Of a stretch of DNA of 64,000 nucleotides, positions 62,504-64,000 are shown piece after piece. Below the pieces are notes generated by a model. The model had not been told where the DNA came from and did not search any database. It was given only the letters and a program-made list of their open reading frames with translations. Source of the DNA: an uncultured SAR86 cluster bacterium. GTDB taxonomy: Bacteria > Pseudomonadota > Gammaproteobacteria > Magnimaribacterales > AG-339-G14. The translations under genes and the position numbers were made by a program. The stretch is from positions 1 through 64,000 of the forward strand of contig CACPDB010000003.1 in the NCBI GenBank assembly GCA_902632605.1. The letters run 5' to 3'. Position 1 is the first letter of the stretch, and each line of letters starts with the position of its first letter.

Positions 62504-63103
62504 CTATAAATATTTCTTTTTTATCTTCTCCAGCCTTAATTTTTGTAAGTCACTTGAAAGGGGCTTTTCCTCTTTAGATTCTTCTTTGATTTCAGGCAAA
62601 AGGAGCAGATCTTCCTTGAATTCACTTTCTTCTAATACTTCCTCATAGGCCTCTAGGAATTCCTTTTTGATATCAAACTCAGACTCTGTTTTTAACCTAT
62701 ACCAACCTACTTTTGCACCAGTGTGATAAACAAATGGATGGGACCAATTAAAATCTAAAGGATTTGTCTCTCCCAAAGAGCTTGCTTCAATGTAAGCACT
62801 ATTTGAAGAAGGGATATTTTGTTCAAGAAGTTTAAGTTCTTTAATTTGATTTAAAACTGCACTCAGAGACGGTAGATATTTTGAAGTCTCTATGATTTTA
62901 TCTATTGCTCTGAATACTATCTCATTTTGATATTTTTCTAGCTTTGCGAGCCAAAGTTGCTTAGCTAAGGATAAGGTCTCCTCATCAGGAAATGCTTTAT
63001 GAAATTGATTGTGAAAAGTGATTTCTAATTCAGCAAAAATCAGATTAATGAGTTCTACCTGGTTTTTAGGTATTTTAATTTTTGAAGTTAACTGCCCACT
63101 CAT
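62504..63103 (-). CDS. lambda replication protein P-like protein
   Basis: A 199-residue protein resembling the phage lambda P family of DnaB helicase loaders. The N-terminal helical part LIFAELEITFHNQFHKAFPD with LAKQLWLAKLEKY and KYLPSLSAVLNQI matches the family's pattern (F.aL...F..., W, P.P..F). The C-terminal part has WSHPFVYHTGAKVGWYRL, also typical of chromosomal members. It is not a phage remnant by context: no phage gene is near. The ATG at 63103 overlaps the end of the DnaT-like gene by 29 bp, so the two are coupled. A role in replication restart or helicase loading is inferred from family. Confidence 0.65.
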   Translation of the reverse strand: MSGQLTSKIKIPKNQVELINLIFAELEITFHNQFHKAFPDEETLSLAKQLWLAKLEKYQNEIVFRAIDKIIETSKYLPSLSAVLNQIKELKLLEQNIPSSNSAYIEASSLGETNPLDFNWSHPFVYHTGAKVGWYRLKTESEFDIKKEFLEAYEEVLEESEFKEDLLLLPEIKEESKEEKPLSSDLQKLRLEKIKKKYL

Positions 63104-64000
63104 GATCTTTTAATCTTGATAATACATTTTTTGTATTCCCATGTTTAGCTTTCCATTTGAACTTTACGTGTTGGATAAATTTCGAATTCCAACAATTACG
63201 CATTTCTTTCGTCTCAAGCCAATATAATTTAAATTCTGGTATTTGAGACACGGCAAAAATTTTATCTATTTTTGCTAAACTCAATACATCATAACAATCT
63301 TCTGAGGGTTCCCAATCTTTTTTCATTCTAGTTGGTTTCTTCACTATAGATATCAAATTTTGATACCTGACCCATTGATTTTTAATATGATTCAGAAATT
63401 TAGTATTCCAAGAATCAGAAGCTGTATTCCTTTCACTCCAATATAAAATGAATTCTGGTAATGCATCGATGATAAATTTTTCGTCTATTTCGGCATGTTT
63501 TAATATTTGTAATGCCTCTTTTGATGGCTTCCAATTTTTTTGAATTGGTTTCATTTTAGATGCTTTATTTAAATTTTCTTCTTCAGTTCTCCATTCTTTT
63601 AAAAGATATTTGAGAAACTTATAGTCCCAAGAAAAGCTTTTATCCTTTCGATCAGACCAATAAGCTCTGAATTCAGGAAGTTTATTTTTAATGAAGTCCT
63701 CTGAAACGCCTAGGCTTTTGGCTTCTTTCAAGATGTTGTTTGAAGGAAAATATCCTCTGGAAATATTTTGCTTTCTTTCCGGAATAGTTTCCTCATTTTT
63801 GGATTTTAGACAGAAAGTCTCTGCGGATGACTCTTCGATTAACTTCAGTTTAAGAAGTTTCTTTAGAACTTTATGAATTTCCTCTTCCTCAAAAAACGAA
63901 AGTTTGTCAATTAGAGTAGCGAGGTTTTGTTTTTTTTCAGCTTTAAATATTTGAAGAATAATTGCTTCTTTGAGACCAATGCTGTAAGCAATTTCTTTAT
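63075..64000 (-). CDS. DnaT-like multi-domain protein, 5' end beyond the window
   Basis: The frame ending at TAA 63075 stays open to base 64000, so the gene enters from outside. The TTG at 63731 that would start a 218-residue product is internal. Visible parts in order: a winged-helix-like N-terminus (KEIAYSIGLKEAIILQIF, then HKVLKKLLKLKLIEE), and three copies of a domain of about 55 residues, each with a W/F-x-PS start, a PEF-x-x-YW core and W-x-x-KF/K-W end, at about 63755-63591, 63533-63372 and 63314-63153. The copies match the DnaT/PriB-type primosome DNA-binding domain. This predicts single-strand DNA binding. The downstream gene resembles a helicase loader. Confidence 0.75.
   Translation of the reverse strand, partial: KEIAYSIGLKEAIILQIFKAEKKQNLATLIDKLSFFEEEEIHKVLKKLLKLKLIEESSAETFCLKSKNEETIPERKQNISRGYFPSNNILKEAKSLGVSEDFIKNKLPEFRAYWSDRKDKSFSWDYKFLKYLLKEWRTEEENLNKASKMKPIQKNWKPSKEALQILKHAEIDEKFIIDALPEFILYWSERNTASDSWNTKFLNHIKNQWVRYQNLISIVKKPTRMKKDWEPSEDCYDVLSLAKIDKIFAVSQIPEFKLYWLETKEMRNCWNSKFIQHVKFKWKAKHGNTKNVLSRLKDHEWAVNFKN

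What the first reader, a model, noticed from the sequence alone, without database searches (positions are those of the whole stretch)
62504..64000. Chromosomal DnaT-like plus lambda P-like pair, a possible cellular helicase-loading system
A protein with a winged-helix-like start and three tandem DnaT-type domains overlaps by 29 bp the gene for a lambda P-like protein. DnaT and P proteins both act at the DnaB helicase, in restart and loading respectively. The setting has housekeeping genes only and no phage genes. The pair may be a stable cellular loader that stands in for DnaC, with the three DnaT domains covering more single-stranded DNA than the single one of E. coli.
Basis: partly seen in the sequence, partly recalled or inferred. 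Interest (0 to 1): 0.65.

Follow-up and report, generated by a model that had tools for sequence, protein, structure and literature searches.

The report
Phage-derived helicase-loader pair of marine bacteria
The two overlapping genes are a phage-derived (DopC/DopE-type) helicase-loader pair in a SAR86 marine bacterium that lacks the usual loaders DciA and DnaC; the kind of system is known, but in two sister families the loader body has been lost and what looks like its helicase-docking tail now ends the partner protein.

Summary
Window 62504-63103(-) encodes a lambda P-like protein of 199 aa. Window 63075-64000(-), with its start at 64031, encodes a protein with a winged-helix-like start and three DnaT domains. 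They overlap by 29 bp. The genome is a SAR86-cluster gammaproteobacterium. The missing 5' side is aroG, nadE, scpA, scpB; no phage genes. The order sample lacks DciA (0/75) and DnaC-type loaders (0/75). The P-like gene is in 55/57 genomes of two SAR86 families, at a conserved chromosomal place.

This is not a new kind of system: it fits the domesticated DopC/DopE pair (Brezellec 2017). Three DnaT domains are the common state in relatives (Pseudohongiella, OM182, Litorivivens). The ssDNA-footprint idea has no support.

Beyond the finding: two other SAR86 families keep the DnaT gene at the same place but have no P-like gene. Their DnaT protein ends in a tail matching the C-terminal helix of the P-like protein, in lambda P tentatively the part that docks on the DnaB linker helix. 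A 10-gene tree makes these two independent losses (AU p 1.7e-46). Elsewhere the second half of the P domain is lost but the tail kept. I infer that the DnaB-docking tail is the essential core.

The parts
62504..63103 (-). dopE-like gene, lambda P-type helicase loader, 199 aa
62636..63055 (-). stretch matching Pfam Phage_lambda_P (profile 1-149 of 162)
62507..62563 (-). C-terminal tail helix of DopE (PLSSDLQKLRLEKIKKKYL), aligned with the lambda P C-terminus
   Evidence: structural role from PMC6391071
63075..64000 (-). dopC-like gene, part inside the window (full gene 63075-64031 on the contig, 318 aa)
63075..63103 (-). 29-bp overlap of the two genes
63807..63998 (-). winged-helix-like domain of DopC (residues 12-75)
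   Evidence: weak E-values
63573..63767 (-). DnaT domain 1
   Evidence: 55.4 bits
63357..63548 (-). DnaT domain 2
   Evidence: 85 bits
63132..63329 (-). DnaT domain 3
   Evidence: 79.3 bits
63093..63122 (-). conserved C-terminal motif of DopC (around RLKDHEWAV; relatives end ..DRSWA..)

Best explanation
The two genes are a domesticated phage replication module (DopC/DopE) that recruits and loads the replicative helicase DnaB on the chromosome in place of DciA or DnaC. Proposed mechanism: DopC binds DNA through its winged helix and its DnaT repeats and recruits DopE or the DopE-DnaB complex (inferred). DopE binds DnaB as lambda P does: its C-terminal helix docks on the linker/docking-helix (LH-DH) module while its helical body wedges between helicase C-terminal domains and opens the ring (inferred from homology). 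Shown here: presence, architecture, P fold, vertical inheritance at one place, absence of the known loaders. Further inference from losses in relatives: the docking tail is the indispensable part.
For: P fold and full-length alignment with lambda P including its tail. One copy in 55/57 genomes of f1+f2, in the same gene order in the 20 loci mapped. DciA 0/75; strong DnaC/IstB 0/75. In a 370-genome class sample DciA is missing from 11 of 19 genomes with a DopE match against 48 of 351 without; of the 8 with DciA, three loci were read and two look like phage or prophage. The same multi-DnaT gene precedes the P-like gene in Pseudohongiella, OM182 and Litorivivens, once next to dnaB itself (L133). 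In phage-like loci a one-DnaT-domain protein overlaps or abuts a P gene (L188, L211, L213). f3 and f4 lack DopE, yet 15 of 15 of their DopC C-termini outscore all 411 other SAR86 C-termini on a DopE-tail profile.
Against: No biochemistry. The absence of DciA and DnaC rests on profile searches of draft genomes. A second, unknown loader is not excluded. f3 and f4 live without the P body, so either it is dispensable or these families load DnaB otherwise. Assignment of the tail to the lambda P docking helix is called tentative by the structure's own authors, though later work names LH-DH as the P site.
Confidence: 0.78

Rival explanations
1. A replication-restart module: DopC acts as a DnaT-like partner of PriA and DopE reloads DnaB at stalled forks only, while loading at oriC is done by DnaA alone or by an unknown factor.
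For: The DnaT domain is named after a restart protein, and E. coli DnaT works in restart (general knowledge).
Against: No oriC loader of a known kind is left in these genomes. Related phage modules initiate at an origin (lambda O/P).
Confidence: 0.13
2. A recent prophage remnant with no cellular role.
For: Phage ancestry of both genes.
Against: No phage genes within the 19 kb read; same gene order in all four SAR86 families; one copy in 55 of 57 genomes of f1+f2.
Confidence: 0.02
3. The f3/f4 DopC tail is a convergent lysine-rich C-terminus, not the DopE tail.
For: The match is only about 11-18 residues long.
Against: All 15 score above all 411 background C-termini (max 2.0; f3 9.5-15.9, f4 3.7-16.1), and DopC of f1/f2 scores at most -3.5. 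With the wider training sets one f4 tail falls inside the background. f3 tails look most like f1 DopE, f4 tails more like f2 DopE.
Confidence: 0.15

Closest known systems
DopC/DopE (Brezellec et al. 2017, Genome Biol Evol, doi 10.1093/gbe/evx111; text not held, abstract recalled; cited in PMC13326638)
   Same: lambda P-derived gene with a partner gene, chromosomal, in bacteria without DciA and DnaC/I
   Different: SAR86 host; reduced forms in sister families (P body lost, tail on DopC). Whether the 2017 set held SAR86 or these forms could not be checked.
Phage lambda O/P and related phage modules
   Same: P fold over nearly full length; DNA-binding partner gene directly upstream and overlapping or abutting
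   Different: chromosomal and vertically inherited; partner carries several DnaT domains
E. coli DnaT-DnaC
   Same: DnaT domain next to a helicase loader
   Different: DnaC is an AAA+ ATPase, DopE is not; E. coli DnaT has one DnaT domain and the partner here has three
DciA
   Same: by inference the same job and the same LH-DH site on DnaB (PMC9912922)
   Different: unrelated protein; absent from the order sample

Membership tests
DopC/DopE | lambda P homologue encoded on the chromosome, outside prophages | tested here: met
DopC/DopE | host lacks DciA and DnaC/I | tested here: met
   own genome and order: (draft genomes)
DopC/DopE | partner gene dopC beside dopE, derived from lambda O | tested here: inconclusive
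   adjacent overlapping partner present; a PHROG 'replication initiation protein' matches at 1.2e-7; derivation from lambda O itself not tested
DopC/DopE | direct sequence match to the proteins named dopC/dopE in 2017 | not tested
   paper not held; Cellvibrionales relatives serve as stand-ins
DopC/DopE | loads DnaB at oriC | not testable with these tools
   needs biochemistry or genetics
Phage_lambda_P (PF06992) | profile and fold match | tested here: met
   (at the cut-off)
DnaT domain (PF17948) | domain over curated cut-off | tested here: met
DnaC/DnaI | AAA+ ATPase domain | tested here: not met
   no such domain in either protein

The most novel reading that the evidence does not exclude
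In two SAR86 families the lambda P-type loader was lost twice independently and only its DnaB-docking tail survives, fused to the DnaT-repeat protein. This would be a one-protein helicase loader without a ring-opening body, which implies that docking on the LH-DH module plus a DNA-binding scaffold is enough.
Probability: 0.55. Interest if true: 0.72.

Novelty: new member of a known kind. Interest (0 to 1): 0.5.

Why it matters
How replicative helicases are loaded in the bacteria that lack DciA and DnaC is little tested. SAR86 is an abundant marine group, and it gives a natural reduction series: full pair; P domain cut in half; only the tail left on the partner. If the tail binds DnaB, this separates recruitment from ring opening, a question that matters for all bacterial loaders.

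Tried and rejected
Prophage remnant: rejected. Three DnaT domains as a special gain: rejected. One shared origin of the DopE-less state in f3 and f4: rejected on ten genes; the DopC tree alone agrees but does not reject it (p 0.22). The 2017 paper was not held, nor was SAR86 found discussed with loaders. PDB sequence searches with the profiles gave no significant hit, so the fold search was used. A first tail profile trained on non-SAR86 tails separated poorly; a second still had DopE copies in its background; the clean version is. DnaB of SAR86 was not located.

Full report
Observation. The lambda P-like protein scores 25.6 bits with Pfam Phage_lambda_P and 54.1 bits with PHROG 109, 'P-like helicase loader'. 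Its AlphaFold model best matches phage lambda P in complex with E. coli DnaB (9oa1, TM about 0.6 over nearly all residues). The partner has three DnaT domains after a winged-helix-like start (the fold match is weak in E-value). Its true start lies 31 bases outside the window (ATG at contig position 64031), beside the stop codon of aroG.

Setting. Upstream come aroG, nadE, scpA, scpB, rluB, ubiG and pntA; downstream come an RND membrane-fusion protein, an RND pump and ispA (names given from my reading of the sequences). No phage genes were seen. The genome has 1.22 Mb and is 92.6% complete. Named relatives with up to 93% identity in the P-like protein are SAR86 cluster bacteria.

Loaders. DciA is absent from the own genome and from 75 of 75 genomes of the order, which fall into four families here called f1 (the window's own) to f4. 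A strong DnaC/IstB match is absent from the same 75; the own-genome hits to that family are weak (best 28.6 bits) and were not examined further. A profile of the P-like protein finds one clear copy in 55 of 57 genomes of f1 and f2. The two misses, G018 and G042, lack the DnaT gene too, so assembly gaps are likely.

Wider distribution. In named genomes the P-like gene occurs in Pseudohongiella, OM182, Litorivivens and other Cellvibrionales and Pseudomonadales. In most of them the gene upstream has three DnaT domains. So three is the common state, not an addition in this window; f2 and f4 have two. Six read loci have the P-like gene without a DnaT neighbour (L093, L096, L102, L105, L112, L132). 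In a sample of 370 genomes of the class, DciA is missing from 11 of 19 genomes with a P-like match and from 48 of 351 without (counted). Of the 8 with both, only three loci were read: one lies by an integrase-like gene and one in a phage-like setting. DnaT was searched only in genomes with a P-like match or without DciA, so its exclusivity with DciA was not fully tested.

Origin. Phage lambda has O directly before P, and so has Pseudomonas phage PAJU2. In phage-like loci a protein with one DnaT domain overlaps or abuts a P gene (L188, L211, L213). This fits domestication of a phage replication module, as proposed for DopC/DopE.

Reduction series. Families f3 (10 genomes) and f4 (8 genomes) have no P-like gene. 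The multi-DnaT gene is found in 9 of 10 and 6 of 8, at the same place in the eight loci mapped, with only 3-57 bases to the next gene. Its C-terminus resembles the DopE C-terminus: f3 ...KLENLKKKHHI, f4 ...TLTNLREKYKI, against f2 DopE ...LLEKLRKKYNL. On a profile of the last 11 residues of f2 DopE, all 15 f3/f4 proteins outscore all 411 other SAR86 C-termini; with wider training one f4 protein drops into the background. In SAR86 genus g5 (f2) and in G077 the P-like protein is cut to 140-169 aa, losing the second half of the domain but keeping the tail. In G217 a winged-helix-like start, the first half of P and a tail form one 385-aa protein without DnaT domains.

Two losses. Ten neighbouring genes (3455 columns) group f1 with f3 and f2 with f4, support 100/100. 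Holding f3 and f4 together is rejected (p 1.7e-46). The DopC tree, rooted on relatives, has the same order but on its own does not reject one origin (p 0.22). The f3/f4 question arose from the DopE absence; a first one-gene tree already showed the split before the test was run. f3 tails resemble f1 DopE tails most, and f4 tails resemble f2 tails somewhat more than f1 tails, as two separate events would give.

Mechanism. In the DnaB-P structure, each P sends a lasso that places a helix against the DnaB linker helix; the authors call the sequence assignment tentative, with cross-links from the P C-terminus to DnaB (PMC6391071). The LH-DH module is described as the shared site of DnaC, DciA and P (PMC9912922). 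The DopE tail aligns with the lambda P C-terminus. I infer that the tail docks DnaB and that selection keeps this part when the rest is lost. Not shown: any binding, loading or essential role.

Known or new. The pair belongs to the DopC/DopE kind. I recall the 2017 abstract (genes derived from lambda O and P, renamed dopC and dopE); the paper itself was not held. A 2026 paper names DopE as a loader family and cites it. The 2016 DciA paper had noted the Cellvibrionales as an order lacking both loaders. The tail fusions may be new; I could not check them against the 2017 text.

Noticed in passing
L184 1462-1968: P-like protein of 169 aa behind a three-DnaT gene in a 1.5-Mb genome (G077); second half of the P domain lost, tail kept.
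   Followed up: partly
L187 751-1905: One 385-aa protein: winged-helix-like start, first half of the P domain, tail; no DnaT domain; next to a sigma-factor gene (G217, no DciA match).
   Followed up: partly
L207-L210: Viral contigs coding for two-DnaT proteins ending in a DRSWA-like motif, with no P-like gene found in the stretch held; possibly phages that borrow the host DopE.
   Followed up: no
L133 2416-5974: The pair lies directly beside dnaB and rplI; in L132 the P-like gene lies near an rpsF-like gene.
   Followed up: no
L093, L096, L102, L105, L112, L132: P-like gene without a neighbouring DnaT gene.
   Followed up: no
L096: Record titled Klebsiella pneumoniae MAG, but its neighbours match those of other environmental Gammaproteobacteria loci; probably a wrong label.
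   Followed up: no
L002 9160-10773: nadE beside aroG is present in f1 and f3 and absent there in f2 and f4, matching the tree split.
   Followed up: partly
L194 556-2079: dnaT-dnaC pair of the E. coli kind in a genome without a DciA match (G373).
   Followed up: no
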